Positions 759 through 46,636 of a DNA stretch of 64,000 nucleotides are shown one piece after another. The translations under genes were made by a program, and so were the position numbers. The number at the start of each line of letters is the position of its first letter. Position 1 is the stretch's first letter. The stretch spans positions 1 through 64,000 of the forward strand of contig NZ_CAMTIK010000008.1 of assembly GCF_947072685.1 (NCBI RefSeq), given 5' to 3'. Source of the DNA: an uncultured Cetobacterium sp. GTDB lineage: Bacteria > Fusobacteriota > Fusobacteriia > Fusobacteriales > Fusobacteriaceae. Under the pieces are notes generated by a model. That model ran no database searches. It had not been told where the DNA came from and saw only the letters and a list, made by a program, of their open reading frames with translations.

Positions 759-2093
759 TTAATAAAGTGATTTTTTTATTTTGATAAAATCACTATTTTC
801 AAGAGGAAAAGATAAGTTCATGACAACAATTTCATTATTTAAATTTGTAAAACTTTCAAGATGAATATTCTCAAAAATTAAAATATTTTTGACATTATTA
901 TTTTTTAGATAAGCTTTTAAAGCATAAACTGAAACAATTTCTGAAATAAAAATAGCTTCTTTATTTAAGTCTTTTATAGCATTATTAAGAAGAAAAAGTT
1001 GTAAAAAATTATAAACAATAATGTTTTTATTAGGTATAACATTAATATTTTTAGTTGGATATACAAACCCTTTTAAAATTAAGAAGAATGTAATTTTGTC
1101 TAAAGTATCTATTTGATAATTGTAAAGTTTTTTAAAATAAATTTCGATTAAATTTGTTAAATTGATATAGAAATCTTTATGTTCTTTTTCAAAATTTTTA
1201 TTAAAAAGATAAAATTTTTTAACTTTGAGAGGGTTTTTAAATTCATCAATAAGTCTAAAACGAGTGACTAAAGCTTTAGTTACATCAATGGGTAAGTTAT
1301 CAGATAACATAATAAATCCATTTAAATAATCAAGAAATTTCGTAACTTCTTTAACTTTATCTGGATAATGTTTAAATAGATTGTATTCGTTATTTTTATC
1401 ACAAAAATCTAAAATTAATTTTATTTCATTTTTTAATTGATATAAATTAGAAATATGTTTATTTCGAATTATTCCGATATATATGAGTAATTCAATTTCT
1501 AAAATTAGATAAGTATGCTCTATTTTATATCTCTGTTTCATTTTTTTTAAAATAAAATTTTGAATATCTTTAGTTATTATTTGATTAAAACTCTCAAAAA
1601 GTGGTGTAAATAAATTCGGAAGATAATTTCGTTCTATAAATAAATTAAAAAGAATAAGATTAAAAAGCTCCTTTTTTTTAAATTCATCTCCAATCAACTC
1701 AATTCCTTTAGAATTTAAACTTTGATATTGTAAGTCAAATTTATTTAAAATTATTTTAGCTTCTTCTAAATCTTTTGATAAAACTCTTCTAGAAACATTT
1801 AATTCTAAACTTATTTTATTTAAATTAATGATATTTGTTTTAAAAAAATTGAAAAAGATATAGTTAATTCGATCTTTCTTATTGATATCTAAAGAATTTT
1901 TTGTTGTACTTATTAAATTTTTTATTTTTTTTAACTCAGTGATATTTTTAGTTTTATAAAAAGAAAATAGTTCTCGTAAATGCCTCCGAATTTTACACTG
2001 TGGAATGCATAAAATTTCACTAATTTCTTCTGTAGAATAATTATCATATAATAAGCATTCTAGTATTTTGATATGTTCTTTTGTTATTTTCAT
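759..2093 (-). CDS. Mga/BglG-like (PRD-type) HTH transcriptional regulator
   Basis: 444 aa; two N-terminal HTH-like segments (STEEISEILCIPQCKIRRHLREL; NLNKISLELNVSRRVLSKDLEEA), long helical PRD-like region; divergent from the fimbrial operon. Confidence 0.6.
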   Translation of the reverse strand: MKITKEHIKILECLLYDNYSTEEISEILCIPQCKIRRHLRELFSFYKTKNITELKKIKNLISTTKNSLDINKKDRINYIFFNFFKTNIINLNKISLELNVSRRVLSKDLEEAKIILNKFDLQYQSLNSKGIELIGDEFKKKELFNLILFNLFIERNYLPNLFTPLFESFNQIITKDIQNFILKKMKQRYKIEHTYLILEIELLIYIGIIRNKHISNLYQLKNEIKLILDFCDKNNEYNLFKHYPDKVKEVTKFLDYLNGFIMLSDNLPIDVTKALVTRFRLIDEFKNPLKVKKFYLFNKNFEKEHKDFYINLTNLIEIYFKKLYNYQIDTLDKITFFLILKGFVYPTKNINVIPNKNIIVYNFLQLFLLNNAIKDLNKEAIFISEIVSVYALKAYLKNNNVKNILIFENIHLESFTNLNNEIVVMNLSFPLENSDFIKIKKSLY

Positions 2094-2215: not shown

Positions 2216-2245
2216 TTGACAAATAGTGTCTTAAATTTTTATAAA
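2216..2245 (+). promoter_or_regulatory. Putative sigma70-type promoter of the fimbrial operon
   Basis: TTGACA (2216-2221), 18-nt spacer, TATAAA (2240-2245). Confidence 0.4.
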
Positions 2246-2350
2246 TTAGAATTTTTTTAATATTATGATATGAAAAAATATCTAATTTTCAAATTACAAA
2301 AAAAATGATAAAGTAGTCACAAACTATCAAATATATATGTGAGGGAAAAA

Positions 2351-3106
2351 ATGTTTTTTAAAAAATATAAAAATAGTATTTTTATAATTTTGTTTATACT
2401 TAATTTTTTAAAAGCTTATTCTTTTAGATTAGATAACTTATCTTTTAATGAAAGAATAGATACAAATGAAGGTGGATATCGAGAATTTTATTTAACAAAT
2501 GATTCTTTAATCCGAAAAAGATATAAGATGAATGTAATAAGTGGAAGTAAGAATGATGGGGCAAAATATGTAGAAGTTTTTCCAAAAGTTATAACAATCA
2601 ATCCAAAAAGTAAAGGAATAGTAAAAGTTTTTGTTAAAGCTCCAAAAGAAACACCTAAAGGTGAGTACGATTTTAAATTACAATTTCAACCAATAAATAT
2701 ACCGACGTTAGCTCAGAACACTCAAGGAAAAATTGAAGGAACAAGTCATATTATGGTAGCTCCGATACTGCAGATGCAAGCCTACGTGGGAGAGGTTGAT
2801 TTTACAAAACATTTAAAACTAGAAAATATAAAAGTTTTAAATAATGAAAATGGTGGAATTAGTGTAAAAAGTCTTTTGTCTAATACAAGTTATGCAAGTA
2901 TAGATTTTGGAGCAGAAGCTTATGGAAAAAATAATTTTTTATACGAAAGTGTGTATGTAGCTGATTTACCAGGAAATACAAAGAATTTAGAAGTAACTTT
3001 ACATTTTCCAAAAATCAAAAATACGAGAGATTTAAGAAAAATAATTTTTTATAGAACACCATCAAATACAAGAAAAGTAATTAAAGAAATTGAGATATTA
3101 CAATAG
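2351..3106 (+). CDS. Fimbrial periplasmic chaperone-like protein (two-domain, PapD-like)
   Basis: Signal peptide; Ig-like beta pattern (REFYLTNDSLIRKRYKMNVI...VEVFPKVITINPKSKGIVKVFVKAPKETPKGEYDFKLQFQPI) followed by a second domain; first gene of a chaperone-pilin-usher order. ORF extends to 2339 but ATG 2351 fits the RBS better. Confidence 0.65.
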   Translation: MFFKKYKNSIFIILFILNFLKAYSFRLDNLSFNERIDTNEGGYREFYLTNDSLIRKRYKMNVISGSKNDGAKYVEVFPKVITINPKSKGIVKVFVKAPKETPKGEYDFKLQFQPINIPTLAQNTQGKIEGTSHIMVAPILQMQAYVGEVDFTKHLKLENIKVLNNENGGISVKSLLSNTSYASIDFGAEAYGKNNFLYESVYVADLPGNTKNLEVTLHFPKIKNTRDLRKIIFYRTPSNTRKVIKEIEILQ

Positions 3107-3172
3107 TTAGGGTTAGATATAGTTATAAACTATATTTATTATAAATTATATTTTTAGGAGGATTATATTATT

Positions 3173-3730
3173 ATGAACAAAAAGGTATTAGGGACATTAT
3201 TTTTATTAACAGCGATTGCATATGGGCAAGATAATAGAGTGATTGTTCCAATTGAGTCAGGGGAGGCTACAGCGAATTTGGCAGTAGAGGTAACTGGACA
3301 AGTATTTAGTCCGGCACAAAAATCATTGGTTGTGGAAATTCAATCAGCAGCATCAGCAGATGGAGCAGGTTTTGCATTTAAAATGCCAGCTTTATTTGCA
3401 AGTGGAACTGAGGTAAAGACAGCTGAAGGTGTATTCACAGCAAAAGTTTTAACAAATGGAGTGGCAGAAGCTTTTAAAGAGGAGCCAACAGTAGCATTAG
3501 TAAAAGGAGGAACGGTTACAGCTGCAAATGGAACAGCGGTAGCAGGAACTCCATCGGGGACGGCAAACGATGTGGAGATAATGTATAATTTAACAGGAGG
3601 ATTAAATACAGCAAAGACAATTTATAATGGGAAATTAGCTGTTTCAGCTAAAGCTGGAACATTAGTTGGAACGTATGCGGATACATCAGTAGCTTTAAGA
3701 GTTGAGGTTTCGGGGCAAACAGGAGCTTAA
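3173..3730 (+). CDS. Putative major pilin (SCPU/spore-coat-U-like secreted subunit)
   Basis: Signal peptide MNKKVLGTLFLLTAIAYG; Ala/Val/Thr-rich beta protein; C-terminus AGTLVGTYADTSVALRVEVSG resembles the SCPU GTYTDTVTVTV motif; strong RBS aggagg. Confidence 0.55.
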   Translation: MNKKVLGTLFLLTAIAYGQDNRVIVPIESGEATANLAVEVTGQVFSPAQKSLVVEIQSAASADGAGFAFKMPALFASGTEVKTAEGVFTAKVLTNGVAEAFKEEPTVALVKGGTVTAANGTAVAGTPSGTANDVEIMYNLTGGLNTAKTIYNGKLAVSAKAGTLVGTYADTSVALRVEVSGQTGA

Positions 3731-3739
3731 AATTTAAAT

Positions 3740-3811
3740 AATGAGATAAAGAAGTTGATATTCTTTATCTCATTAAATAAATATAAAGTCTATTTATTTA
3801 ATGAGATAAAG
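3740..3811 (+). promoter_or_regulatory. Alternative-hairpin element between pilin and usher genes
   Basis: A1 aatgagataaagaa (3740-3753), A' ttctttatctcattaaataaa (3761-3781), A2 tttatttaatgagataaag (3793-3811): A' can pair with A1 (14 bp) or A2 (19 bp). Confidence 0.6.
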
Positions 3812-3824
3812 TTTGGGAGGAAAA

Positions 3825-6527
3825 GTGATTATTAAAAATATTTTTAGTAAAAATTATATGTTTTTACTAATATTATTGATAATAAAGTCTTTATTAATAT
3901 ATGCACATGATGATATAAGCATAGAGGAATTGATAGACTTAAAAAATCAAAATCTAATAACAAATGAAGAATTTAATATCTTAAAATCAGAAATATTAAA
4001 AGAAAATATAGAAGAGGAAAATTTATATGATTTATTAATTGATTCAAAATTAATTTCTAGAACATACAAAATTTATGAAAAAAATGGAAGATATTTTTTT
4101 CCAATAAAAGAGTTTTTAAGGCATATAAATTTTAAAAATTATAGGGAAACTAAAAATGAACTTATTCTTTTTCTAGGATCTTCTTTAAGGGAAGTTAAGA
4201 TAAATTTAAGAGAGGAATATGTATTTCAAGAAAATGATGAGATTTATATAGAGTCAGATAGATTTTCAGATTTTTTTTTAAGAACGTATTCAATTGAGCC
4301 TAATGAATACTTAATAAGAATGTATTTATCTTTTGATACTCCTGATGAAGTAATGCAATTATTGGATATATCTAAAAACAAGATTTTAAAAAAGAGTGAA
4401 AAAAATGAACTGATATTCAATTCAAAAAGAAAAGCATTTGATTTAGGGTATACACGTATTCAATTAGGAAAAAATTTTGATAAAGAGTTAGGGAAAAATG
4501 GATATCAAAATTCTTGGGATGGAAATTTAGGGTATCAAGGTGGACTTCTATATGGTCAAATAACCTCTGAATATAATTTAAAGGATAAAGAATTAAATAC
4601 AGTTAGATTAGAGTATACAGGTTTATGGAATGGACATAATTTTGATATAGAAAATAGAAGGAATGGAGATGATCGAGAATGGGGATTATCCTTTTATAAA
4701 GATAGAGGATTTTATGAAACTGCAGGTGGACAAATTGTAATTAGAGAAAATATTCCTCTAGGAAGTAGAGCAGAATTAATTTATATGGGGACTTCGATAG
4801 AAATAAAAGATGAAGAGAATGGTATTGTTGAATTTGAAAATCCTTTAATAAGGTCAGATAGAACGTATACTTTAAAAATTTATGAACCAAATGGAAAAAT
4901 TTATACAAGAGAAATAAGAACGACACAAGATTATAATTTACAACAAAAGAGACAGTTTGAATATAGATTGGGAATAAATGAGAATAGTTATTACGATAAA
5001 TTTGAAACAGAATTAAATATTTTTTATGGTATTACTAATAGTCTTACATTAGGTGTGGGTTATTCTAGAAATATAGAGGATATAAAAACTGGAAGAGATG
5101 TTACAGGAAATATTAATCAAGAAACAAAATACATAGATAAATTAAAGCTGGATTTAATTTATGGAGGGACTTATAACTCAGTATCTTATATTTTTAGTTT
5201 ATCAGGGGATCAAGCAATAAATCAATTTGAATCATATGAAGAGATTGGGAATAATAGAAGATATATATCCTCTAACGAAAGATATACCTATAAATATTTA
5301 AATCAATTTAATTACTCAAAATGGAGGTTTATTTATGAACATGAAAAATTTGGAATTTTTTATGATGAAATAAAAAAAGATAGAATTGACTTAAAATATG
5401 ATATATTTAAAAATACAAATATTGGATATGTTTATGAATTTAAAGAATATAGAAAGTCAAAAGATGAAATAGAATATATTACATTTGATAGTGATTATAT
5501 ATGGAATAAGTTTCTATTTACTATAGGAACTTCTTTAGATTTAAATAATAGAGAAGATAATGAATATCGTGTAGGCGCATATTATAGCGGATGGCAAAAA
5601 TTAACAGGAAGAATAGAAAATACTTGGAGAAAAAATGGTGATGAATATGAAACAAGGATTAGTTTGTATAATAATAATTTTGGAGGATTTCTCGATTTTA
5701 CAACGGAGTTAGCATACTCAAAAAAAGAAAAAGAAAAAATAAGTTTTAAATTTGCTGTTAAACTTGATAATTGGCTAAGAATAGATACAAATTTAAAAAA
5801 TGATGGAACTAGAAATCATAGAGTTGGAGTTGATAGAATATTTGATTTAAAAAATCCAACAGTGGATATAGACAACATGAATAGCTCAAGAGTTAAAGTG
5901 ATTACATTTATTGATAGTAATAATAATGATATTTATGATGCTGGAGATAAAATAGTTCCAGGAGTAGAAGTAAATATTGGAGATAAAAAAGTAGTAACAA
6001 ATGAAAAAGGAGAAGGTATGTTTTATGGAATAGGAAATGGTATTCTTTATGATATGAAGGTTACAATAAAAAAACCATCCTTTACTTTGGGGAATAATAA
6101 TATAAAAGTTAGAAGTAATTTTTCTTCTACAATAGATGCGTATATTCCAATAAAACCAATGTTAACATTAAGTGGAAATATTGAAATAGATAAAGAGTTA
6201 AAGCTTACTGAAAGTGAAAAGATAGAATTTTATAATGATTTGATAATTGAATTAAAAGACTTTAAAGGAGGAGTGATTGAAACAACAGCTCCTGATAATG
6301 AAGGATTATTTGATATAAGTGGATTGTTTCCAGAAGAATACTATATAGAGGTTACTTATGTAGGGACAAAACTTAAATTAAAAAATATCAAAGAAGAGAT
6401 TCAGCTACATTATTCAGAAGATAGCTCTGTAAATTTTATAATATTAAAAATTAATAATAATAAAATTTCTATAAATTCTTCAGAGTTACAAAATAAGTTC
6501 AGCGATTCAAGGAGAAAAGATTTATGA
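3825..6527 (+). CDS. Outer-membrane usher-like protein (archaic-type chaperone-usher family)
   Basis: ~900 aa; beta-barrel-rich; PLGSRAELIYMGTSIEI..GIVEFENPLIRSDRTYTLKIYEPNGKIYTREI plug-region signature; C-terminal FIDSNNNDIYDAGDKIVPGVEVNIGDKKVVTNEKGEGMFYGI resembles archaic usher 'FLDxNxNGxxDxGExPxxGVxV'. GTG 3825 after GGGAGG is the likely start. Confidence 0.7.
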   Translation: MIIKNIFSKNYMFLLILLIIKSLLIYAHDDISIEELIDLKNQNLITNEEFNILKSEILKENIEEENLYDLLIDSKLISRTYKIYEKNGRYFFPIKEFLRHINFKNYRETKNELILFLGSSLREVKINLREEYVFQENDEIYIESDRFSDFFLRTYSIEPNEYLIRMYLSFDTPDEVMQLLDISKNKILKKSEKNELIFNSKRKAFDLGYTRIQLGKNFDKELGKNGYQNSWDGNLGYQGGLLYGQITSEYNLKDKELNTVRLEYTGLWNGHNFDIENRRNGDDREWGLSFYKDRGFYETAGGQIVIRENIPLGSRAELIYMGTSIEIKDEENGIVEFENPLIRSDRTYTLKIYEPNGKIYTREIRTTQDYNLQQKRQFEYRLGINENSYYDKFETELNIFYGITNSLTLGVGYSRNIEDIKTGRDVTGNINQETKYIDKLKLDLIYGGTYNSVSYIFSLSGDQAINQFESYEEIGNNRRYISSNERYTYKYLNQFNYSKWRFIYEHEKFGIFYDEIKKDRIDLKYDIFKNTNIGYVYEFKEYRKSKDEIEYITFDSDYIWNKFLFTIGTSLDLNNREDNEYRVGAYYSGWQKLTGRIENTWRKNGDEYETRISLYNNNFGGFLDFTTELAYSKKEKEKISFKFAVKLDNWLRIDTNLKNDGTRNHRVGVDRIFDLKNPTVDIDNMNSSRVKVITFIDSNNNDIYDAGDKIVPGVEVNIGDKKVVTNEKGEGMFYGIGNGILYDMKVTIKKPSFTLGNNNIKVRSNFSSTIDAYIPIKPMLTLSGNIEIDKELKLTESEKIEFYNDLIIELKDFKGGVIETTAPDNEGLFDISGLFPEEYYIEVTYVGTKLKLKNIKEEIQLHYSEDSSVNFIILKINNNKISINSSELQNKFSDSRRKDL

Positions 6528-7075
6528 GAAGATTTAAAATATTTATTTTGTTGATTTTATTAATTTATTTTAAAAATATTTTTTCTAATGATAATCTTAA
6601 TACAGAAATACCCAAAATATTACCGCCTAAAATAGTAAATCAAGAAAATTCAGACGATGATTTTGCTATTCCAGAAATAAAAAAGTCAGGTGAAGATATA
6701 GATGGTGAAGATTTAAGGTATTTGGAAAAAACTTATACAGTAATGGTAGAAGCTAAGGTAGATGTTTTTATTCCTTTGGAAGTAGTTTCAGATATTAATA
6801 TAGAAGAAACAATAATTGGGAATCAAATAAAAGAAATTCCCTTTGAGATTGAATTAAATCGAACTCCTGAAAAAAAAGATTATTATTCTATAAAATATAG
6901 TGAAACTGTAATAGATATAGATATGGATGGGAAACCAGACACATATATTTATTCACCAAAATATATTAATGAAAAGATATCAAAAGATAATTATGTAAAA
7001 ATATATGGTGAAAAGATCACAAAAGAGGGAACTCATCGAAAAAAAATTTATGTAACAGTTGAAGTTGGTGAATAG
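6524..7075 (+). CDS. Secreted fimbrial accessory protein / minor subunit
   Basis: 183 aa, signal peptide, ATGA overlap with usher gene, beta-rich. Confidence 0.45.
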   Translation: MRRFKIFILLILLIYFKNIFSNDNLNTEIPKILPPKIVNQENSDDDFAIPEIKKSGEDIDGEDLRYLEKTYTVMVEAKVDVFIPLEVVSDINIEETIIGNQIKEIPFEIELNRTPEKKDYYSIKYSETVIDIDMDGKPDTYIYSPKYINEKISKDNYVKIYGEKITKEGTHRKKIYVTVEVGE

Positions 7076-7142
7076 TAAAAAATTAAGGAAAGAAAAAGAA
7101 GTTCAATTTCTTTCCTTTTTCTTTATAAAACTGGAGGAAATG

Positions 7143-7586
7143 ATGAAAAGTAAATTATTAATTTTAGTAGTGTTAATTTATTTTAAAAGCTATGCAGAAA
7201 TTATATTAAAAATACATGAGCCAATGCGGTTTGAAAATATAAATACCAGAGCAGCAGGTGATGTTATAGTTGGAGAGGGAAGTATAGAAGTTATTTCAGA
7301 TAATTTAGAAGTTGATAGAGATAAAAAATTTATACTTAAATTTCCCAAAAAAGGATTAATGACTAATAATAAAAGATGGATTGAAATTGATAAATATATG
7401 ATAGAAGATTCAGATAGGGTATTTAGATTAACTAAAGAAAAGAAACTTATAAAAATATATGCAATAATAGACAGAAAAAAATTAAATAATCAATGGATAA
7501 AAGCTGAAGATTTAGAAGGTGAGTATATTGGATATGTTCCTATTATAGTTGAACAATATGGAAAACCAATGAAAAAAATAGATTAA
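7143..7586 (+). CDS. Secreted putative minor pilin
   Basis: Signal peptide MKSKLLILVVLIYFKSYA; C-terminal GEYIGYVPIIVEQYG resembles a pilin C-terminal strand; ORF opens at 7059 but RBS ggagg precedes 7140/7143. Confidence 0.45.
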   Translation: MKSKLLILVVLIYFKSYAEIILKIHEPMRFENINTRAAGDVIVGEGSIEVISDNLEVDRDKKFILKFPKKGLMTNNKRWIEIDKYMIEDSDRVFRLTKEKKLIKIYAIIDRKKLNNQWIKAEDLEGEYIGYVPIIVEQYGKPMKKID

Positions 7587-7605
7587 GAAGAGATGGAGAA
7601 AGAGA

Positions 7606-8016
7606 ATGAAATGTATGTTAGTAATTTTTTTTGTTTTTTCTAAAATTATGTATGGATATATAAACATATATCCTTCAAAATTTGAAAAAAATATAGAGAA
7701 TGGAGTTAATGAAACATTTAGATTGTATAATAGGACAGGTAAAGAAATAAGATATAGGATTTATTTAGAGGAAACAGTTGAAAATGATATGACTAAATGG
7801 ATTGAATTATATCCTAAAAGTATAACCTTAAATCCCCTTGAAGAAAAAGAGGTAAATCTTTTTATAAATCCACCTAAAGATGCAAAGCATGGAAAATATA
7901 GATCAAAATTAATTGTAAAAGAAGTGGACATACCTGGGAAAAAAAGATTTGAAAAAGTTAAATTTATGACAATGTTTAAATTAACTATGATTGGTTATAT
8001 TGGAGAAGATAGATGA
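7606..8016 (+). CDS. Half-size chaperone-like protein (single Ig-like domain)
   Basis: 136 aa; INIYPSKFEKNIENGVNETFRLYNRTGKEIRYRIYLEE...WIELYPKSITLNPLEEKEVNLFINPPKDAKHGKYRSKLIVKEV; PapD N-domain-like pattern without the second domain. Confidence 0.5.
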   Translation: MKCMLVIFFVFSKIMYGYINIYPSKFEKNIENGVNETFRLYNRTGKEIRYRIYLEETVENDMTKWIELYPKSITLNPLEEKEVNLFINPPKDAKHGKYRSKLIVKEVDIPGKKRFEKVKFMTMFKLTMIGYIGEDR

Positions 8017-8552
8017 AAAAAAGTATAAGAAAAATTAAAATTTTAAGTATAATATTAATTTTATTTTTAGCAATAGCTAATAAAAAAAAAATGATCTCAG
8101 TAACTTATGATGATTCTTATTTGGTAAATAAAAATTTATTTGTATATCTTAAAGACAATAAATTTGGAATAATGAATTCTGACAAAAAAGTTTTAGTTCA
8201 AAATGAATATGACGAAATTTCGAAATATATTGACAAGATATTTATAGGGGAGAAAAATTTAAAATATGCATTATATAATTTGAAAAATAAAAAAGTATCA
8301 AAAAACTATGATTATATAGAGCAAATTGGAGAAAATGAATTTAGGGGTGGAACAGAAGAAATAGGAAAATATGCTTTTTTAAGTGAGAAGATTTCAACAG
8401 ATGAAAAATATTTAGATGTAATTAATACAAATAAAAATATTTATATTGGATTATTGGAGGATAAAAGAGTAGAAATAATAAATTTAGAATCAAAAAAAAT
8501 AAAAATATTAGAATTTACTGAATTACAAAAATATTTAGAAAATTTGAACTAG
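8013..8552 (+). CDS. WG-repeat-like secreted/membrane-anchored protein of unknown function
   Basis: 179 aa; DNKFGIMNSDKKVLVQNEYDEISKY resembles a WG repeat; ATGA overlap with upstream gene. Confidence 0.4.
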   Translation: MKKSIRKIKILSIILILFLAIANKKKMISVTYDDSYLVNKNLFVYLKDNKFGIMNSDKKVLVQNEYDEISKYIDKIFIGEKNLKYALYNLKNKKVSKNYDYIEQIGENEFRGGTEEIGKYAFLSEKISTDEKYLDVINTNKNIYIGLLEDKRVEIINLESKKIKILEFTELQKYLENLN

Positions 8553-8562
8553 GAGAAGATAA

Positions 8563-11271
8563 ATGAGTATAAAAAATATAATATATACAATGAGTTTCAT
8601 ATTATTGTGGATATTGAATACAAATATAAATTTGGCTTCTCCTCCAGAAGCTCCAAATTATTTAATTACAGAAAATCCATATAAAGAAGTAAAAACAGTA
8701 GAGGCTACTAAAAATAGAGATCGTGCTGAAATGAATATAACAGTCAATAAAATTAATACTAATAAATTAACAGGAATAAAAAATTCGAAAGGAAAAGTAA
8801 TAATTTCTTTCCCTTCCGAAGAATTTGACAAAATAAGAGAAGAAAATTATGAGTATCAAATTTTAAATTCTGATGACATTAATGGAAGTAATACTACTAG
8901 AAAAAAAAGAAGTGTACAAACACTTCAAAATCAAAATTTAGATATAGACACAGAAAATAAAATAATATCTATAGATAAAAATGATACTAATAATTTTTAT
9001 ATAGGGAGAAGAAATAGTCAAACTGGAAGTTTTGAGAAAATATGGGATATTAGTGTTCAAATGGAGATAGTTCCAACCTCTTTTGCTGATCAAATTCAAT
9101 TTTATAGGAAACCATTTGCAGAGGTAATCGAAGTAGGAAATAAAAAGTTATTATGGATTGGGAATTTATTAAGAGTAAATAGAACACAGGGAACTGGATT
9201 AGGGAATCCTGAAGATGGAATTGGTTATTACAACTTTTCTCTTGATTCAAGTACAAATAATCCTCAAAATTTAATGTTTATAGGTGCAGCAGGTTCACCA
9301 GTTACTGCAGCAAAATTTTTATTTGGAAATGATAGTTTGATAAAAGGGCGTTCATTTGCTGTTAGTAGAGAGAGAGAGTCAGATATAGGATCAGATTTTT
9401 ATACAACATCAGGACTAAATTCACTTGCCTCATATGGGTTATCTTATCCAACTAAAAAATCAACAGATAATAATTATGGTTGGATTTTAGCTACGAAATT
9501 AATGCTCGATGTAACTAATACCTATGATAGAATATTGCAGTATAATGCATATACGATTGTTAATCAATTACCGATAACATTGAGATTTAGACATTGGAAT
9601 AATACTGCAACAAGTGACAGAGATGAAACTTATACAATAATACCAACAAATGGATTAAGAATTCCAATAAAAATCTCTTTAAAAGAGGATGTAAATGTAA
9701 ATGGAAATATTGTTGAGATTGGAAGACCTTATTCAATTTATGAAACTATTACCGAAGAAGCTTTAAGTGTAAGTAAAGTCGGGAGGTTACAAAGTATACC
9801 AAATACGCCATATACAGATATTCAAGCAATTACATTACCTACGGGTATGGCAATGGCAAAAACTGCCACTGAACTGAGATTTACAAAAACAGTAAGTGGT
9901 GTTAAATATGAATTTTATATAGATAAAGAGAAAGAAATTTTTACGTTGATAAACTGGGATGGTAAAGCAATTAATGACGAAATTATAATTGAGACGCCAA
10001 CGACAATGAAAAAGATTATCCGAATAAAAATATCAGAAAGATTGTCTGAAAATATTGGAGAAATGGTTATAATACTAGATAAAAGATTAAATATAATCCC
10101 ACAAAGATTACCGGGAGAAACTGGGATTTGGGTGGACGGAACAGGAGTTTTAAGAGAAAAAATCAATGATACAAGATCTCTTGGAGAATTTCCAGAATTA
10201 ATGAAAGTAGAGGGAGGATATACTTCTAAAACGCCAAATACGCAAATGATAGTTCAAAGTGTAAAAGGGTTGAATAAAAAAAATGTAGCGGGGTCATATG
10301 AAGTATGGAGTAGTATAGATGGAGAAAATTCGATAGGACTATTATCTAAAGGAATTCTTTCTGATTATAATTCTTTAACAAAATTGAGAGTTGAATTAGA
10401 TAAAAATAGACAAACAGAAACTCGCGAAAATGAATTTACTTTGGCAAACGAAGGGAAAACCTATAGTTATGTTGGAAGATTAAAAAAGGAATATATATAT
10501 GAAGAGATTAAAGCCCAAGCTAGCTTAAATATGAGTGATGTTTCGATAGCACAAGAGTTAAAATGGCACTCAGGAAATACTAACGGAATATCATCAATAA
10601 GTAATATAAAATTAAATTTTTTGGGAAATAGTAGAGTTTTTGATACTATAGGAGTAAAGAATGGGCAAAGTATCGTTAATGAATTGGAGGTTACAGGTTC
10701 AAAAAGTGGTGTATTAAAAGCAGATAATGGAATACTAACTACGGGAAAAGATATTAAGGTTGAGTATAAGAATCTAGGAATAGAAATTGGTATTAAATCA
10801 TCTGGAGAATTGTTCATATTAAAAAAAGAAAATAAACCAATAAATGAAATATTTACAATAAAAATTTATTATAAAGCAGCAGGAAAAATTTTTCTAGGAC
10901 AAATGGAAGTAGATATCTTTAATCAAGGAACAACTTTTGAAATTTTACCAGGAAAAGGAAAATTAGATTTTGGAGATTTTTTTCCAGGTGATATAAAAAA
11001 AGCTGAAAGTTTAATAGAGTTTAAAAATCCAACTAATGCAAAAATATTAATAGATTTAAGTTCAACAAATAACAACAATATGTATAGGCAAAACAGTGGA
11101 ATAACATCTCAAACTACAATACCATTAAAAAATATTCAAGTAAAAGATTTAAAATCAAACTCAGGAAATGTAAATTCTTTTAAAATATTGGGAGAGGCGA
11201 TAACAACAAAAGATACTGAGAGTGGAGAATATAAAGGGATTTTAGATGTAATAATAACTGTTATACCATGA
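8563..11271 (+). CDS. Large secreted protein, putative fimbrial tip adhesin
   Basis: 902 aa, signal peptide, beta-rich; C-terminal pilin-like domain LDFGDFFPGDIKKAESLIEFKNPTNAKILIDLSS...ESGEYKGILDVIITVIP. Confidence 0.5.
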   Translation: MSIKNIIYTMSFILLWILNTNINLASPPEAPNYLITENPYKEVKTVEATKNRDRAEMNITVNKINTNKLTGIKNSKGKVIISFPSEEFDKIREENYEYQILNSDDINGSNTTRKKRSVQTLQNQNLDIDTENKIISIDKNDTNNFYIGRRNSQTGSFEKIWDISVQMEIVPTSFADQIQFYRKPFAEVIEVGNKKLLWIGNLLRVNRTQGTGLGNPEDGIGYYNFSLDSSTNNPQNLMFIGAAGSPVTAAKFLFGNDSLIKGRSFAVSRERESDIGSDFYTTSGLNSLASYGLSYPTKKSTDNNYGWILATKLMLDVTNTYDRILQYNAYTIVNQLPITLRFRHWNNTATSDRDETYTIIPTNGLRIPIKISLKEDVNVNGNIVEIGRPYSIYETITEEALSVSKVGRLQSIPNTPYTDIQAITLPTGMAMAKTATELRFTKTVSGVKYEFYIDKEKEIFTLINWDGKAINDEIIIETPTTMKKIIRIKISERLSENIGEMVIILDKRLNIIPQRLPGETGIWVDGTGVLREKINDTRSLGEFPELMKVEGGYTSKTPNTQMIVQSVKGLNKKNVAGSYEVWSSIDGENSIGLLSKGILSDYNSLTKLRVELDKNRQTETRENEFTLANEGKTYSYVGRLKKEYIYEEIKAQASLNMSDVSIAQELKWHSGNTNGISSISNIKLNFLGNSRVFDTIGVKNGQSIVNELEVTGSKSGVLKADNGILTTGKDIKVEYKNLGIEIGIKSSGELFILKKENKPINEIFTIKIYYKAAGKIFLGQMEVDIFNQGTTFEILPGKGKLDFGDFFPGDIKKAESLIEFKNPTNAKILIDLSSTNNNNMYRQNSGITSQTTIPLKNIQVKDLKSNSGNVNSFKILGEAITTKDTESGEYKGILDVIITVIP

Positions 11272-11284
11272 TAAGATAAAAGAG

Positions 11285-11677
11285 GTGAGAGGAATAAAAA
11301 ATATTTTCAAATTAATAATTATGCTTTTATTAAATACTTTTTCTTATGGGTTTAAAATAAATGATTTAAATTTTAATGAAAAAATATCAAGAGGAGAAAG
11401 TCAAACTAAAGAGTTTATTTTAACAAATAATGATATAAATTCAAAGATTTATAGAATATTAATAGAGGGAGATGAAGATGTGAAAGTAATGCCTAATATT
11501 TTAACTATAGATTATTTGTCAAGTAAAAAAATTAAGATAAAAGTAGATGCCAACAAATCAAAAGGAGATTATAGCTATTTTTTAGTAATCAAAGAAATTG
11601 AAAAACAGCTAAAAGAACAAGGGGTAGGCATAAATAAAATTGTAAAAATAAAACAATCTTATCAAATTATAGAATAA
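11285..11677 (+). CDS. Second half-size chaperone-like protein
   Basis: 130 aa; FKINDLNFNEKISRGESQTKEFILTNNDINSKIYRILIEG...VKVMPNILTIDYLSSKKIKIKVDANKSKGDYSYFLVIKEI, parallels the first domain of the 2351-3106 product. Confidence 0.5.
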   Translation: MRGIKNIFKLIIMLLLNTFSYGFKINDLNFNEKISRGESQTKEFILTNNDINSKIYRILIEGDEDVKVMPNILTIDYLSSKKIKIKVDANKSKGDYSYFLVIKEIEKQLKEQGVGINKIVKIKQSYQIIE

Positions 11678-11769
11678 AATTAATAACAAGATTATGGAAT
11701 GGCAACCTTTGAGTCTTCTTTAAATTTTGTGTAAACTCTAAAAATTAAGAGTAATATTTTATATTTTTA

Positions 11770-11800
11770 GGGATGATTTATTTTTAAATCATCCCTTTTT
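11770..11800 (+). terminator. Rho-independent terminator of the fimbrial operon region
   Basis: GGGATGATTTAtttttAAATCATCCCTTTTT. Confidence 0.65.
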
Positions 11801-12321: not shown

Positions 12322-13458
12322 ATGAAACGGTTTAATATTGGAACTACTATATATTTTGGAGAAGGGTCTCTAGAAAAATTAAGGGAGTTAGATAATAAAA
12401 AGATACTAGTTGTATGTGATGAATTTATAGGGACATCTGATATTTTAAAAAAAGTATTAGAGAAACTAGAAAAATGTGAAGTTTTAGTTTTTGATGAGAT
12501 TATACCAGATCCTACAATAAAAATTGTTGCAAAAGGTGTGCAGCTTCTAAAGAGAGAAAGGTTTGAGTTGATAATCGCTTTAGGAGGAGGTTCTTCAATA
12601 GATGGAGCTAAAGCTATAAGAGAGTATTATAAAAGAATTGATGAAAATGTAAAAATAGATTTTTATGCTATTCCAACAACTAGTGGAACAGGTTCAGAAG
12701 TAACAAAGTATTCAGTTATAACAAATGAAAAAGAAAGTTTAAAGTATGCTTTAACAAATGAGGATTTATTGCCAACAATAGCGATATTAGATCCAGAGGT
12801 GGTAAAATCAGTTCCAAAAAGTATAACTGCAGATACAGGAATGGATGTACTAACACACGCAATAGAAGCTTACGTATCTAAAGAAGCTTCTGATTTTACA
12901 GATGCTTTAGCAGAGAAAGCTTTTGAATTGACTGTAAAAAATTTAGCAAAAGCTTATTTAGATGGAAATGATACGTATGCTAGAGAAAAAATGCATAATG
13001 CATCATGTTTAGCAGGACTTGCATTTAATGCAGCAGGACTTGGATTAACTCATAGTTTAGCTCATGTTATTGGGGGAAGATTCCATATTCCACACGGAAA
13101 AATAAATGCAATTATACTACCTTATGTAATTAAATTTAATTCAGATATAGATAGAAAATCATATTTAGATTCAGAAAATAAAATTTTAAAAAAATATCAA
13201 AAGTTAGGGAAAATAGCTGGTCTTAATGGTGTTAACTCAGTTATCGGAACAAGTAACTTAATAAACTATATTCAAAAATTACAAAAATCTATTGCCATTC
13301 CTAAAAATTTAAAAGAGCTAAAAATTGATGGTAGCTTACTTTTACAGGATGTAGAAACAGTTTATGAAATAGTAATGAAGGATATTTGTACAAAAACAAA
13401 TCCAAAAGAAATTAGTAAAGAGGATATAAGAATATTGCTGAAAGAGATTGTAGGATAG
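12322..13458 (+). CDS. cutO: Iron-containing alcohol dehydrogenase (CutO-like)
   Basis: 378 aa; GGGSSIDGAK, TTSGTGSEVT, D-(V)LTHAIEAY and HSLAHVIGGRFHIPHG metal-ligand motifs; adjacent to the cut BMC locus. Confidence 0.85.
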   Translation: MKRFNIGTTIYFGEGSLEKLRELDNKKILVVCDEFIGTSDILKKVLEKLEKCEVLVFDEIIPDPTIKIVAKGVQLLKRERFELIIALGGGSSIDGAKAIREYYKRIDENVKIDFYAIPTTSGTGSEVTKYSVITNEKESLKYALTNEDLLPTIAILDPEVVKSVPKSITADTGMDVLTHAIEAYVSKEASDFTDALAEKAFELTVKNLAKAYLDGNDTYAREKMHNASCLAGLAFNAAGLGLTHSLAHVIGGRFHIPHGKINAIILPYVIKFNSDIDRKSYLDSENKILKKYQKLGKIAGLNGVNSVIGTSNLINYIQKLQKSIAIPKNLKELKIDGSLLLQDVETVYEIVMKDICTKTNPKEISKEDIRILLKEIVG

Positions 13459-13476
13459 AAGTTTGGGAGTGATAAA

Positions 13477-14295
13477 ATGGAAAAAGCGAAATACTATATT
13501 GGAGAAGTTGAAAAAATTTGTGGTATAGCGAAAAAAACTCTAAGGTTTTATGACAAAATAGGACTACTTTCACCCTTTGAAATAAATAATAATGGATACA
13601 GATATTATAGTAAAGATAACTTATATACAATACCAGTAATAAAATATTATAAACAGAGTGGATTTACACTAGAGAGTATAAAAAAAGTTATGAATGACTT
13701 TAATTGTCAACATATTGAGGAAAGTTTTTCAGAAAAAATAAAAGATTTAGAAGAGATGGAAAGGGAGCTAGTTTTAAAAAAACGTTCCCTTGAGGATTGG
13801 AACTCTTTGGTAAAAGAAGCTAGAATAATTTTAGAATACAACTTAACAGATGTGAAAGTAAAATATTTAGAGAAGGATACTTATATTTATCATATTCAAG
13901 AGTTCAGTGAAGATTATATAAGTTCTGTAATAAATATAGATTTTACTAATTATATAGAGGAGATAGGAAATGCAATAACAGGTCCTGTTATAATTGAGTT
14001 CTCCTCGTTAGAAAGCAAATTAAAAGGTGAAACTCAAAAAGTAAGAATACTCCAAAAAAATCTTATAAAGTGTGATTCGGAACTTTTAACTGATTTTGGA
14101 GGAAAACTTGTTGTTTCTTGTTATCATATTGGTTCTCATAAAATTATAAAAGAGACCTATAAAAAGATTTGTGATTGGGCAAAGCTTCATAACTATAAGC
14201 TTGAAGATTGTTGCTATGAAAGATATGTGATGGATTATTGGACCACAAAAGATGAAGCGAAATTTGTAACAGAGATAATAATGAGTATAAAATAA
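13477..14295 (+). CDS. MerR-family regulator with C-terminal effector-binding-like domain
   Basis: YYIGEVEKICGIAKKTLRFYDKIGLLSPFEINNNGYRYYSKDNL; 272 aa. Confidence 0.9.
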   Translation: MEKAKYYIGEVEKICGIAKKTLRFYDKIGLLSPFEINNNGYRYYSKDNLYTIPVIKYYKQSGFTLESIKKVMNDFNCQHIEESFSEKIKDLEEMERELVLKKRSLEDWNSLVKEARIILEYNLTDVKVKYLEKDTYIYHIQEFSEDYISSVINIDFTNYIEEIGNAITGPVIIEFSSLESKLKGETQKVRILQKNLIKCDSELLTDFGGKLVVSCYHIGSHKIIKETYKKICDWAKLHNYKLEDCCYERYVMDYWTTKDEAKFVTEIIMSIK

Positions 14296-14321
14296 TAAAG
14301 GTTCCACTAAGGTGGAATGTA

Positions 14322-14361
14322 AAAAACAGGTTGGCAACTTAGATTGTTAACCTGTTTTTTT
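14322..14361 (+). terminator. Terminator after merR gene
   Basis: AAACAGGTTggcaacttagattgttAACCTGTTTTTTT. Confidence 0.75.
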
Positions 14362-14437
14362 AATTATAAAAGTTCTAAAAACGAAAAAATAGGGTTATAT
14401 ACAAAAAATAAAAATTAAAATAGTACATATTTTTTTA

Positions 14438-14469
14438 TTGACATTAGATATATGTGGAAGGTTTATACT
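14438..14469 (+). promoter_or_regulatory. Candidate MerR-type promoter of the cut operon (20-bp spacer)
   Basis: TTGACA 14438-14443, 20-nt spacer, TATACT 14464-14469. Confidence 0.5.
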
Positions 14470-14537
14470 TATATTATAACAAGGAAAAAATAGTAAATTC
14501 CCCAATTTATTATTAAAAAGAGTGACAAGGAGGAGTT

Positions 14538-15656
14538 ATGCCAGAAATAATATTGAATGAGACGGCAGAAGTTGAGATTTTAGAAAAAGAAGTAAAAATT
14601 GTAGCTCTAAAGGAACAAAGTAAAAATAATTTTTTAAAAAAGGGTATTAAAATTGGATTATTTTCAGGAATGACTTATGGTATTTATACAGCTTTTTTAA
14701 CTTTAGGAATGACTAAAGGGATTTGGGCAGATTGGTATGGTCAGAATTTGGAAGGACTTTCAACTTTTGTAATCGTATATTTATTAGCAGCATTAGGAAA
14801 TGCAATAAATGATACGTGTAGCGCATTTTGGGCTTTAGGTAATGCTGGTTATCAAGGAAAACTTGGTGATTTTGTGAGAACATTAAATACAAAACCTGGA
14901 AGAATGCTTATGTTAGCAGCAATGCTAGGAGGACCAATAGCTGGAACATCTTATGTGATAGCCCTTCAAATGGCAGGATCAATAATAGTTCCAATATCAG
15001 CGCTTTGTCCTGCAATAGCAGCAATTTTAGGAAAAATATTTTATAAACAAGAGATTAATAAAAGAATGACTTTTGGAATTTTAATATGTGTATCAGCAAG
15101 TTTTTTAATAGGAAGTACAAGCTTTGTTGGAGAGGAGATTTCAACAGAAGTTTTACTAGGGATTATAATAGCAATAATAGCGGCTTTTGGTTGGGGCTTT
15201 GAAGGATGCATTGCAGGATATGCATCAGCTATGGTGGATCCACAAATTGGAATATGTGTTAGACAGTTAACTTCAGGACTTACAAATATATTTATAGTTT
15301 TGCCAATACTTGGATTTTTAAGTGGAGATGTAACAACTTCAATAACACTTACTATGAAAGCTTTTTCTAGTTCGCCAGCGATGTTTTGGTTTATATTAAG
15401 TGGACTAGCAACATTTATATCTTTTACAGCGTGGTACACAGGAAACAGTATGTGTGGAGCAGGACTTGGAACAGCATGTAATGGAACATACTCATTCTTT
15501 GGGCCATTCTTCTGTTGGTTATTCTTAGGAGTTATTGTTGGAATAGATGGGTGGGCTCTTCCTATGGTAGCTTGGATTGGAGCAATAATAATGGTTATTG
15601 GAATCTTAATAATTGCAGTAAATCCTTTAGAATTCTTAAAAAATAGGGAGGAATAA
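14538..15656 (+). CDS. DMT/EamA-like membrane transporter in the choline locus
   Basis: 372 aa, ~10 hydrophobic segments, first gene of cut operon. Confidence 0.6.
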   Translation: MPEIILNETAEVEILEKEVKIVALKEQSKNNFLKKGIKIGLFSGMTYGIYTAFLTLGMTKGIWADWYGQNLEGLSTFVIVYLLAALGNAINDTCSAFWALGNAGYQGKLGDFVRTLNTKPGRMLMLAAMLGGPIAGTSYVIALQMAGSIIVPISALCPAIAAILGKIFYKQEINKRMTFGILICVSASFLIGSTSFVGEEISTEVLLGIIIAIIAAFGWGFEGCIAGYASAMVDPQIGICVRQLTSGLTNIFIVLPILGFLSGDVTTSITLTMKAFSSSPAMFWFILSGLATFISFTAWYTGNSMCGAGLGTACNGTYSFFGPFFCWLFLGVIVGIDGWALPMVAWIGAIIMVIGILIIAVNPLEFLKNREE

Positions 15657-15658
15657 TT

Positions 15659-15925
15659 ATGATGCCACTTAACTATGCAATATTAAAGTATTTTACAAAA
15701 CATGGGAGCTCATCTGTTTATGAGGTGATGGAATCTTTAAAAAAGGATTATAAAAATTTTAAATCTTTCAATAAGAACTCTGTAATAAATGCTTTGATGA
15801 CAGCTGAAGCAAATGGATTAATAGAAGAAATAAATGCAGATTTAGACGAAAATGGGAATTTAGTTTTATACTATGAAGCTAATAAAGAAAGTAAGGATGT
15901 AATCAATAGTTTTATAAAAGATTAA
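15659..15925 (+). CDS. Small winged-helix-like protein, unknown function, GRM-associated
   Basis: 88 aa; LKYFTKHGSSSVYEVMESLKKDYKNFKSFNKNSVINALMTAEANGLIEEI resembles a wHTH. Confidence 0.5.
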   Translation: MMPLNYAILKYFTKHGSSSVYEVMESLKKDYKNFKSFNKNSVINALMTAEANGLIEEINADLDENGNLVLYYEANKESKDVINSFIKD

Positions 15926-15946
15926 TAATTAAGTTTGGAGGATAAA

Positions 15947-16243
15947 ATGAAATATTATGGAAATGAAGCTTTAGGGTTAGTTGAAACACTTGGACTCGTT
16001 CCAGCTTTAGAAGCAGCAGATAAGATGTTAAAAGCTGCTAATGTTGAATTAGTATCTTATGAAAATATTGGGTCAACACTTGTCACTGTAATGGTAAAAG
16101 GAGATGTAGCAGCAGTTAAAGCAGCGGTTGAAGCTGGGGCAGCGGCAGCGGCGGCAGTGGGAAAATTAACAGCTAAGAATGTCATGCCAAGGCCTATAAG
16201 TGAGATTGGAAAAATAGTAACAGTTCATGATATAGATCAATAA
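15947..16243 (+). CDS. BMC-H shell protein 1
   Basis: [58 protein letters not shown]; single BMC domain. Confidence 0.95.
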
Positions 16244-16263
16244 TCAAAGGGGAGTTGACTTGG

Positions 16264-16563
16264 ATGTTAAGAAGAGAAGCAATAGGATTAATAGAAACAT
16301 TTGGATTAGTTTTTGCCTTAGAAGCAGCAGATGCTATGTGTAAAGCAGCAGATGTGGAGTTAATAGGATATGAAAATGTGGCATCTGGATACATAACTGT
16401 TATAGTTACAGGAGATGTAGGAGCTTGTAAAGCAGCAGTAGATGCAGGAGTGAATGCAGTAACTAATATGGAGGATGGAAATCTATATAGCTCAATAGTT
16501 ATAGCTAGACCACACGGTGATATACAGAAGATAATTGATAAATATGCTATTCCAAACTTATAA
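16264..16563 (+). CDS. BMC-H shell protein 2
   Basis: EAIGLIETFGLVFALEAADAMCKAADVELIGYENVASGYITVIVTGDVGACKAAVDAG; ATG 16264 likely. Confidence 0.93.
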   Translation: MLRREAIGLIETFGLVFALEAADAMCKAADVELIGYENVASGYITVIVTGDVGACKAAVDAGVNAVTNMEDGNLYSSIVIARPHGDIQKIIDKYAIPNL

Positions 16564-16583
16564 AATAAGAGGTGGAATTAAAA

Positions 16584-18026
16584 ATGACTATAATAGATAA
16601 TGATCTACTTTCTATGCAAGAAGCTAGAATAATAGCTGAAAATTCTAAAGAGGTCCAAAAGGTTTTAAAAACTTTTTCTCAAGAACAATTAGATAGCGCT
16701 ATAGAGAGTATAAATAGAAAATTAAAGGGAAATATTAACCAGATAGCTTTTGAACTTTATGAAGAGATTGATTTTGGAGTAAAAGAGGATAAGGTTATTA
16801 AATTAAATCTACTTTTGGAAAATGTTATTGAAAAAATTAAAGATATGAGATGTGTGGGGATTATATCTCAAGACAACAAAATATCTAATATTGGAGTTCC
16901 TGTTGGAGTTATTGTAGCATTTTGCTCTGAGAGTAATCCAATATCAACACTTATTTATAAGGTTTTAATAGCTATAAAATCTGGGAATTCAATAATTTTT
17001 AATCTACAAAAAAATTCAAAAAAAACAATGATAAAAACCTTGGATTTAATAACGGAAGCAGCAGAAGAGGTCGGGTATCCAAAGGGAGCTATTTCATATT
17101 TAAGTAGAATATCTCTAAATGGAACAAAGGAACTTTTAAATCATAATGGGGTAGATTTAATTTTAAATACTGGAGTAGAAGAGATTCTGCCAGAGATTTA
17201 TAAAAGTGGAAAAACTTTAGTTTATGGAAGTAGTGGAAATACTCCTGTATTTATTGAAAAAACTGCTGATATAAAAAAATCTATTTTGGATATAGTTATA
17301 AGTAAAACTTTTGACAATGGAGTTATGCCAGGAGCAGAGCAAGCAGTAGTTGTAGATAAAAATATTTTAAACGAAGTAATAAAAGAGTTTGAATTAAATG
17401 GGGCTTATTTTTTAAATGAAACTGAAAGTGAGAAAATAAAAAATCTTATATTTGATTCAAACGGTAATTTTAAAAAAATATATATTGGAAAAGATGCACA
17501 GTTTTTAGCTCAACGAGGAGGAATAACTGTTCCAAAAGATACAAAGATACTTATTTCAAAGGAGAAATACGTATCTTTAGACAATTCATTTTCTAAAGAA
17601 AAATTATGTCCTATACTTTCATTTTACATAGAAGATAATTGGATGAGTGCTTGTGAAAAATGTATAGAAATTTTACTAAATGAGAAGCAAGGGCATACTT
17701 TGGTAATTCATTCCAAGGATGAAAATATAATAAGAGAATTTTCTTTAAAAAAACCTGTGGGAAGAGTTTTAGTTAACACATCTGGAAGTTTTGGAAGCAT
17801 GGGAGGAACAACAGAGTTATTTCCGTCAATGACATTAGGATGTGGAGTTATAGGAAGAGGAATGACCTCAGACAATGTTTCTCCAATGAATCTTATATAT
17901 ATAAGAAAAGTTGGTTATGAAGTGAAAAGTTCTGAAGATTTGCTAGAAAAATATAAAGATAAAAAAGATGAAGAGCAAGAGATATTAAAAAGACTAGAGG
18001 AAATATTAAGAGATATTCTATCTTAA
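16584..18026 (+). CDS. Aldehyde-dehydrogenase-family paralogue lacking the catalytic Cys (CutB-position)
   Basis: EutE/PduP-like fold motifs, but [15 protein letters not shown] replaces FDNGTICASEQSIIC of the paralogue at 24328. Confidence 0.8.
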
Positions 18027-18039
18027 GGAGTGTAATAAT

Positions 18040-20583: not shown

Positions 20584-20598
20584 AATTTGGAGAAACTT

Positions 20599-21540
20599 AT
20601 GGAAAATAACCATTTAGAAAGAAAAGCAAGAATTTTTAATATTCAAAAATACAATATGTATGATGGACCTGGAGTAAGAACTTTAATATTTTTTCAAGGA
20701 TGTCCTTTAAGGTGCAAATGGTGTGCAAATCCAGAAGGATTAGAAAAAAGATGCAGAGTTATGTTTAAAAGTAACAACTGTATTGATTGTAATAGGTGTA
20801 AAGATGTTTGCCCTGTTGAAATCCATAGTGTAAGTATGAATAATACTCATATCATAGATAGAACAAAACAGTGTATAGGTTGTAGAAAATGTGAAAAAGA
20901 GTGTAACCAAGAGGCTTTAAAAATAGTTGGTGAAGATAAAAAAATATCAGAACTGTTAAAAGATATAGAGGAGGACCGTACATTTTATGAAATGTCAGGT
21001 GGTGGTGTAACTTTAGGTGGTGGAGAGGTTTTAATGCAACCTGAAGCAGCTATAAATCTGTTGATGGCTTGTAAAAATGTTGGACTAAATACAGCAATAG
21101 AAACTTGTGGTTACACAACTTTAGAGGTAATAGAAAAAGCTGCTGAATATGTAGATTTATTTCTATTTGATATAAAACAAATAGATTCAGATAAACATTT
21201 TCATTGGACTGGGGTTAGAAATGAAAGAATTTTAGAAAATTTAAAATATCTTTTAGAAAATAAGTATAACGTAGAGATTAGAGTTCCATTAATAAAAGGT
21301 GTAAATACTGAAAATGATGATATAGAAAATCTAATTAAATTTTTATTATCATATAAAGATTATAAAAATTTAAAAGGTATAGATTTATTACCATATCATA
21401 AAATGGGTGTAAATAAATATGAACAACTAGGTATGAACTACGAGATGAAGGGTGAGTTCCAATTAACTAATGATGAATTAGACCAAATGGAAAATTTAAT
21501 AAAAAAATATGATTTACATGTCAGAGTTATACGTCATTAA
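20599..21540 (+). CDS. cutD: CutC-activating radical SAM enzyme
   Basis: GCPLRCKWCANPEG (CX3CX2C), plus ferredoxin-like Cys clusters CIDCNRCKDVCP and CIGCRKCEKEC. Confidence 0.95.
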   Translation: MENNHLERKARIFNIQKYNMYDGPGVRTLIFFQGCPLRCKWCANPEGLEKRCRVMFKSNNCIDCNRCKDVCPVEIHSVSMNNTHIIDRTKQCIGCRKCEKECNQEALKIVGEDKKISELLKDIEEDRTFYEMSGGGVTLGGGEVLMQPEAAINLLMACKNVGLNTAIETCGYTTLEVIEKAAEYVDLFLFDIKQIDSDKHFHWTGVRNERILENLKYLLENKYNVEIRVPLIKGVNTENDDIENLIKFLLSYKDYKNLKGIDLLPYHKMGVNKYEQLGMNYEMKGEFQLTNDELDQMENLIKKYDLHVRVIRH

Positions 21541-21575
21541 TTACTAGTTGTTTAAAACTATAGAGGGTGGAAGAG

Positions 21576-22978: not shown

Positions 22979-22995
22979 AGTTATAGGGAGAAAAA

Positions 22996-23256: not shown

Positions 23257-23274
23257 TTTGGAAAGGGGAAAAAC

Positions 23275-23901: not shown

Positions 23902-23917
23902 AGGAGGGAGGTAAAAA

Positions 23918-24325: not shown

Positions 24326-24327
24326 AA

Positions 24328-25839: not shown

Positions 25840-25841
25840 AA

Positions 25842-46504: not shown

Positions 46505-46540
46505 ATATATACACAAAAATAATATAAGTGTAGATATGAA

Positions 46541-46617: not shown

Positions 46618-46636
46618 TTAGTTTAGTTTTTAATAA

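What the first reader, a model, noticed from the sequence alone, without database searches (positions are those of the whole stretch)
2216..11677. Chaperone-usher-like fimbrial system in a fusobacterial-looking genome
Seen: gene order two-domain chaperone - pilin - usher - secreted proteins - half-chaperone - WG-like protein - 902-aa adhesin-like - half-chaperone, all + strand, most with signal peptides and several with ATGA overlaps. The usher-like protein carries a FIDSNNNDIYDAGDKIVPGVEV segment and the pilin ends GTYADTSVALRVEV, resembling archaic (sigma-clade/SCPU) chaperone-usher systems. Established: archaic CU pathways are best described in Proteobacteria and a few other phyla. I am not aware of a characterised fusobacterial example, so this divergent locus may be an undescribed lineage of surface fibres.
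Basis: partly seen in the sequence, partly recalled or inferred. Interest (0 to 1): 0.85.

Follow-up and report, generated by a model that had tools for sequence, protein, structure and literature searches.

The report
Fusobacterial chaperone-usher pilus with half-chaperones
This stretch of a Cetobacterium-like fusobacterium encodes a hair-like surface fibre machine of the chaperone-usher kind, in a phylum where reviews list none, and it carries unusual one-domain 'half' versions of the helper protein that normally has two domains.

Summary
Window 2351-11677 is one operon-like block: two-domain chaperone, pilin-like protein, usher, two conserved secreted proteins (s4, s5), half-chaperone, WG protein, 902-aa tip protein, half-chaperone, terminator. 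AlphaFold plus Foldseek makes 3825-6527 an usher (top 18 PDB matches nearly all FimD/PapC, E to 1e-21) and 2351-3106 a PapD/FimC/CsuC-like chaperone. Pfam sees neither directly, but profile chains link both to relatives that pass the Pfam Usher and PapD_N cut-offs; reversed-profile controls are silent. Relatives occur in 35 of 98 Fusobacteriota genomes, all one family. Reviews say F. nucleatum lacks the pathway. The ushers are full-length kin of an unlabelled DUF4402-linked usher class in Proteobacteria. The strangest part is conserved single-domain chaperones: their ushers form one clade (8 loci, 4 genera), they end just after the donor-strand region, and one is fused to WG repeats. Fibre formation and half-chaperone function are inferred, not shown.

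The parts
762..2093 (-). divergent regulator-like gene next to the operon (444 aa, weak HTH matches); candidate regulator only
   Evidence: HTH_5/HTH_11 below cut-off; homologues near several related loci (E 1.8e-13 to 3e-4)
2351..3106 (+). two-domain periplasmic chaperone (chap1)
   Evidence: AF2 pLDDT 88, pTM 0.76; Foldseek matches to FimC, CsuC, FaeE, Caf1M, PapD over both domains, E about 1e-7 to 1e-8; members of its family A3 match PapD_N; hhalign to group B chaperones 5e-24
3173..3730 (+). putative major pilin
   Evidence: position between chap1 and usher in type I loci; followed by a strong stem-loop as in 17 of 17 loci; no domain match, no profile match once signal peptides are removed
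3739..3775 (+). stem-loop in the pilin-usher spacer, likely lowering downstream transcription or protecting the pilin message
   Evidence: z -4.6; 17 of 17 loci z -2.6 or lower; chap1-pilin control spacers mean z -1.0
3825..6527 (+). usher (900 aa): helical N-terminal segment, N-terminal domain about 67-143, barrel from about 209 with plug about 296-365 after the sixth strand, two C-terminal domains (about 687-764 and 780-860)
   Evidence: AF2 pLDDT 76.8, pTM 0.58; Foldseek top 18 all FimD/PapC; hhalign chain to classical ushers
6524..7075 (+). s4: conserved secreted protein, putative minor subunit with a DxDxDG loop
   Evidence: alignment A6, 14 loci; no known family
7143..7586 (+). s5: conserved secreted protein, putative minor subunit or adaptor
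   Evidence: alignment A7, 14 loci; no known family
7606..8016 (+). half-chaperone hc6: chaperone domain 1 only, ends just after the G1-like strand (KLTMIGYIG)
   Evidence: hhalign to two-domain chap2 1.4e-41 over domain 1 only; single-domain orthologues in other type I loci; no decayed domain 2 downstream
8013..8552 (+). WG-repeat-like protein with N-terminal hydrophobic segment; overlaps hc6 by ATGA
   Evidence: WG_beta_rep E 7e-4, below cut-off; directly after hc6 in most type I loci and fused to hc6 in L068
8563..11271 (+). 902-aa putative tip protein with a C-terminal pilin-like domain (last about 150 aa)
   Evidence: hhalign of the C-terminal 150-aa family to group B pilins 1.7e-6, 90%; reversed control silent
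11285..11677 (+). half-chaperone hc9: chaperone domain 1 only
   Evidence: hhalign to chap1 4.6e-15 over domain 1; beside the tip gene in other type I loci
11769..11796 (+). terminator-like stem plus T run closing the operon

Best explanation
The locus builds and exports an adhesive surface fibre by the chaperone-usher pathway. Sec-exported subunits are held in the periplasm by PapD-like chaperones that lend them a strand; the 900-aa outer-membrane usher accepts these complexes, lets the next subunit's N-terminal strand replace the chaperone strand, and extrudes the fibre tip first. Gene 3173 is most likely the major pilin (its transcript meets a stem-loop that would give pilin excess), s4 and s5 are minor subunits or adaptors, and the 902-aa protein is the tip adhesin, joined to the fibre by its C-terminal pilin-like domain. 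The full chaperone serves the pilin. The two single-domain chaperones most likely serve the tip protein (hc9) and a minor subunit (hc6), using domain 1 alone because it carries the donor strand. Shown here: usher fold, chaperone fold, homology chain, conserved gene order, domain-1-only chaperones. Inferred: pilin role, fibre formation, strand exchange, client assignment, adhesion.
For: Usher: AF2 model with six strands before and about 18-19 after a plug domain; Foldseek top 18 hits all FimD/PapC (E 1e-21 to 1e-10), other barrels only near 3e-6. Chaperone: model; FimC, CsuC, FaeE, Caf1M and PapD dominate the matches. Homology chain: group A to group B ushers 4.8e-59 over 763 columns, group B to classical 6.6e-8, against a known classical-alternative yardstick of 3.3e-7; groups B+P to classical 6.9e-12 over 509 columns; reversed profiles all E 0.036 or worse. 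Group B ushers pass the Pfam Usher cut-off and their pilins the SCPU and DUF4402 cut-offs; PapD_N over cut-off in 10 of 61 related genomes. Gene order and tip C-terminal pilin-like domain. Pilin-following stem-loops.
Against: The window usher itself matches no usher model in Pfam or NCBIfam. TM-scores to FimD/PapC are only about 0.3-0.4 and the usher pTM is 0.58, so the strand count is approximate. The pilin, s4 and s5 have no demonstrable homology to any pilin. Chaperone Foldseek matches also include WxLIP, Vpr and CEP192 Ig domains. Subunit-chaperone complexes were not modelled. No expression, fibre or adhesion data.
Confidence: 0.85

Rival explanations
1. The usher pathway is real but makes no polymer: it displays single adhesins or a short fibrillum (tip protein plus s4/s5), and gene 3173 is an independent abundant surface or periplasmic protein.
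For: Gene 3173 has no pilin homology and its family is the most variable, while s4 and s5 are conserved in 14 of 14 loci aligned; very long downstream proteins, up to 2129 aa.
Against: A pilin-like gene sits at the same place in nearly all loci, four in a row in L071, and is followed by a stem-loop as expected for a major subunit.
Confidence: 0.2
2. The half-chaperones are not chaperones but structural parts: domain-1-derived caps, terminators or adaptors that stay in or at the base of the fibre.
For: They lack domain 2, which in the archaic CsuC chaperone supplies two of the three residues that anchor the subunit C-terminus (PMC4654587); hc6 is fused to WG repeats in one locus.
Against: They keep the domain-1 region and end just after the donor-strand region; hc6 orthologues in type II loci are full two-domain chaperones next to the usher; classical chaperones anchor with domain-1 residues only (PMC4654587).
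Confidence: 0.3
3. The 900-aa barrel belongs to another outer-membrane transport family and the neighbours are unrelated Ig-like proteins.
For: No Pfam usher match; C-terminal SdrD_B-like and CarboxypepD_reg-like domains are common in other proteins.
Against: Foldseek separates ushers from all other barrels by many orders of magnitude; profile chain to Pfam-positive ushers and PapD_N chaperones with silent controls; a plug after strand six and two C-terminal domains are usher anatomy.
Confidence: 0.03

Closest known systems
Archaic (sigma, SCPU) chaperone-usher pili: Csu of Acinetobacter baumannii, CupE of Pseudomonas aeruginosa
   Same: Chaperone model matches CsuC (6fqa, 5d6h, 6fjy); a group B fusobacterial pilin is over the SCPU cut-off; tip adhesin with a pilin-type domain.
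   Different: Window pilin and tip not recognised by SCPU; single-domain chaperones; extra s4, s5 and WG genes; usher not compared with a Csu-type usher.
DUF4402-linked chaperone/usher clusters of Proteobacteria (Polaromonas, Sphingopyxis, Pseudoalteromonas, Vibrio records)
   Same: Full-length usher homology (window family 3.3e-19, group B 2.7e-45), SdrD_B/CarboxypepD_reg-like C-terminal domains, ushers likewise not labelled as ushers.
   Different: Their pilins are DUF4402, the window pilin is not recognised; two-domain chaperones; no half-chaperones, s4, s5 or WG genes seen.
Alternative (alpha) pathway: E. coli common pilus EcpABCDE, CFA/I, CS1
   Same: Two chaperones per locus and a large tip adhesin.
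   Different: TcfC and CooC_C usher domains absent in the window family; separate branch in the tree.
Classical pathway: type 1 (FimCD) and P (PapCD) pili
   Same: Usher and chaperone folds.
   Different: About 9-16% identity in the structural alignments; the Pfam Usher model does not match the window protein.

Membership tests
Chaperone-usher pathway | Usher: barrel of about 24 strands with a plug after strand 6, N-terminal domain and two C-terminal domains | tested here: met
   AF2 strand list 6 + plug + 18-19, Foldseek top hits FimD/PapC; exact strand number uncertain
Chaperone-usher pathway | Two-domain Ig-like PapD-type chaperone | tested here: met
   for 2351-3106; 7606-8016 and 11285-11677 are domain 1 only
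Chaperone-usher pathway | Subunits with incomplete Ig fold completed by a donor strand | tested here: inconclusive
   Only the tip C-terminal domain links to pilins; pilin, s4 and s5 not recognised; no complex modelled
Chaperone-usher pathway | Direct match to Pfam Usher PF00577 (annotation criterion) | tested here: not met
   for the window; met by group B relatives L053 and L052
Archaic (sigma/SCPU) class | SCPU domain in the pilin | tested here: not met
   group B pilin in L054 has 23.2 bits against a cut-off of 22.4
Archaic (sigma/SCPU) class | Usher groups with Csu/CupE-type ushers | not tested
   no such usher sequence could be obtained from the collections
Archaic (sigma/SCPU) class | Chaperone carboxylate anchor Arg89 plus Tyr196/Arg174 in domain 2 (CsuC, PMC4654587) | not tested
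   no residue-level alignment to CsuC was obtained; domain 2 is absent altogether in hc6 and hc9
Alternative (alpha) class | TcfC and CooC_C domains in the usher | tested here: not met
   (14 members) against EcpC, positive
DUF4402-linked class | Usher homologous over full length | tested here: met
   hhalign 3.3e-19 over 730 columns, reversed control 0.18
DUF4402-linked class | DUF4402 pilin | tested here: not met
   window pilin no match; tip C-terminus weak, 2e-5 and 77%

The most novel reading that the evidence does not exclude
Fusobacteriaceae carry a separate lineage of chaperone-usher pili in which single-domain chaperones, made of donor-strand domain 1 alone and partnered by a WG-repeat protein, escort tip or minor subunits, breaking the pattern that these chaperones have two domains.
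Probability: 0.4. Interest if true: 0.78.

Novelty: new variant of a known kind. Interest (0 to 1): 0.62.

Why it matters
Papers place archaic chaperone-usher pili in Proteobacteria, Cyanobacteria and Deinococcus-Thermus, and reviews say F. nucleatum lacks the pathway. This adds a further phylum, in Cetobacterium and some Fusobacterium relatives, with an usher type that standard annotation does not recognise. If the half-chaperones work, they make the minimal unit of donor-strand chaperoning directly testable.

Tried and rejected
Direct Pfam, NCBIfam and PDB sequence searches with the window proteins gave no usher or chaperone match. SCPU or DUF4402 identity for the window pilin, s4 and s5 was tested and dropped: matches seen came from shared signal peptides and vanished when these were removed. 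Foldseek against viral structures was uninformative. Decay of domain 2 after hc6 and hc9 was looked for in three frames and not seen. The sigma-70 promoter scan was no better than shuffles.

Full report
Observation. The pilin motif is not quite terminal. N-termini look like signal peptides by eye; no signal predictor was run.

Genome. The window lies in a 2.15 Mb genome. Genomes of the same genus carry records named Cetobacterium, and related loci come from Cetobacterium, uncultured Fusobacteriaceae and a Fusobacterium sp.. The organism is fusobacterial.

Usher. In 3825-6527 Pfam recognises only C-terminal domains (SdrD_B over cut-off, CarboxypepD_reg below it). The AF2 model (14 sequences, pLDDT 76.8, pTM 0.58) has six strands, a plug insertion at about 296-365, 18-19 more strands and two C-terminal domains. 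Foldseek against the PDB returns FimD and PapC for ranks 1-18, E 9.7e-22 to 1.3e-10; other barrels start near 3e-6. TM-scores are low (0.25-0.35 by query), so the fold class is secure but details are not.

Homology chain. Group A is the window type; group B is a second set of fusobacterial loci. A pure group A profile finds group B ushers in genome searches. By hhalign, A-B is 4.8e-59 over 763 columns and B-classical 6.6e-8, against 3.3e-7 for the accepted classical-alternative relation. A-P (Proteobacterial DUF4402-linked) is 3.3e-19 and B+P-classical 6.9e-12 over 509 columns. Reversed profiles give nothing better than 0.036. Group B ushers L053 (43.1 bits) and L052 (27.2) pass the Pfam Usher cut-off of 27.1; group B pilins pass SCPU and DUF4402.

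Chaperones. The 2351-3106 model (pLDDT 88) matches FimC, CsuC, FaeE, Caf1M and PapD across both domains; the best single match, though, is an unrelated peptidase (Vpr), and WxLIP also appears. hc6 (7606-8016) and hc9 (11285-11677) align to domain 1 only (1.4e-41 and 4.6e-15) and stop just past the G1-like strand. The G1 assignment is by alignment, not by a modelled complex. In type II loci the hc6 orthologue is a full chaperone directly before the usher.

Two locus types. Type I (window, both L038 loci, L039, L057, L068, L069, L071): chap1-pilin-usher-s4-s5-hc6, most with WG, tip and hc9. Type II: chap1-pilin-chap2-usher-s4-s5-long protein. In the usher tree type I is one clade (98/98, 8 loci, four genera). 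hc6 is fused to WG repeats in L068. Single-domain chaperones also occur in group B locus L054, so the trait is not confined to type I. Not every type I locus has every gene: L069 shows no hc9 or tip, and L039 no WG.

Subunits. The tip C-terminal 150-aa family matches group B pilins (1.7e-6, 90%). The pilin, s4 and s5 match nothing once signal peptides are removed. All 17 pilin-following spacers tested hold a stem-loop (z -2.6 to -8.2); 15 chap1-pilin spacers average z -1.0, two of them below -3. This favours the pilin role but does not prove it.

Distribution. 35 of 98 Fusobacteriota genomes, 7 of 29 genera, all in one family, hold a match at 1e-5. The own genome has the window locus, a type II locus on C46 (cut by the contig end) and a group B locus on C5.

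Literature. Archaic pathways are given for Proteobacteria, Cyanobacteria and Deinococcus-Thermus (PMC4654587; PMC10104325). Two reviews state that F. nucleatum lacks the chaperone/usher pathway (PMC12940168; PMC13432900). No held paper contains the word DUF4402. The library is incomplete, so absence is weak evidence. CsuC anchors its subunit with one domain-1 and two domain-2 residues, classical chaperones with domain-1 residues only; a domain-1-only chaperone could therefore in principle anchor in the classical manner but not the archaic one. That is inference.

Verdict. A chaperone-usher system is well supported (0.85). Its class is open: not alternative by domain content, archaic not tested on the usher, nearest measured kin outside the phylum the DUF4402-linked class. 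The half-chaperone mechanism is a hypothesis (about 0.4).

Noticed in passing
window 12322-26468: Neighbouring cluster with iron alcohol dehydrogenase, MerR regulator, BMC shell protein, pyruvate-formate-lyase-like glycyl radical enzyme and aldehyde dehydrogenase: looks like a glycyl-radical microcompartment operon.
   Followed up: partly
window 46529-46621 (- strand): TPP riboswitch (82.7 bits).
   Followed up: no
L087, L088, L089, L092, L093, L094, L096: Proteobacterial clusters of DUF4402 or unnamed pilin, chaperone and usher whose usher is annotated as carboxypeptidase regulatory-like, SdrD B-like or hypothetical protein.
   Followed up: partly
alignments A3 and A11: These chaperones match WxL-interacting proteins of Gram-positives (WxLIP; E 4.3e-5), hinting at a link between the two.
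   Followed up: no
L047 9968-12966: Usher gene of a type II locus split into two frames: possible pseudogene or sequencing error.
   Followed up: no
L045 8564-9024 and L051 1848-1974: Similar repeats (AACTTTGCTTCAA...) in the pilin-following spacers of two loci.
   Followed up: no
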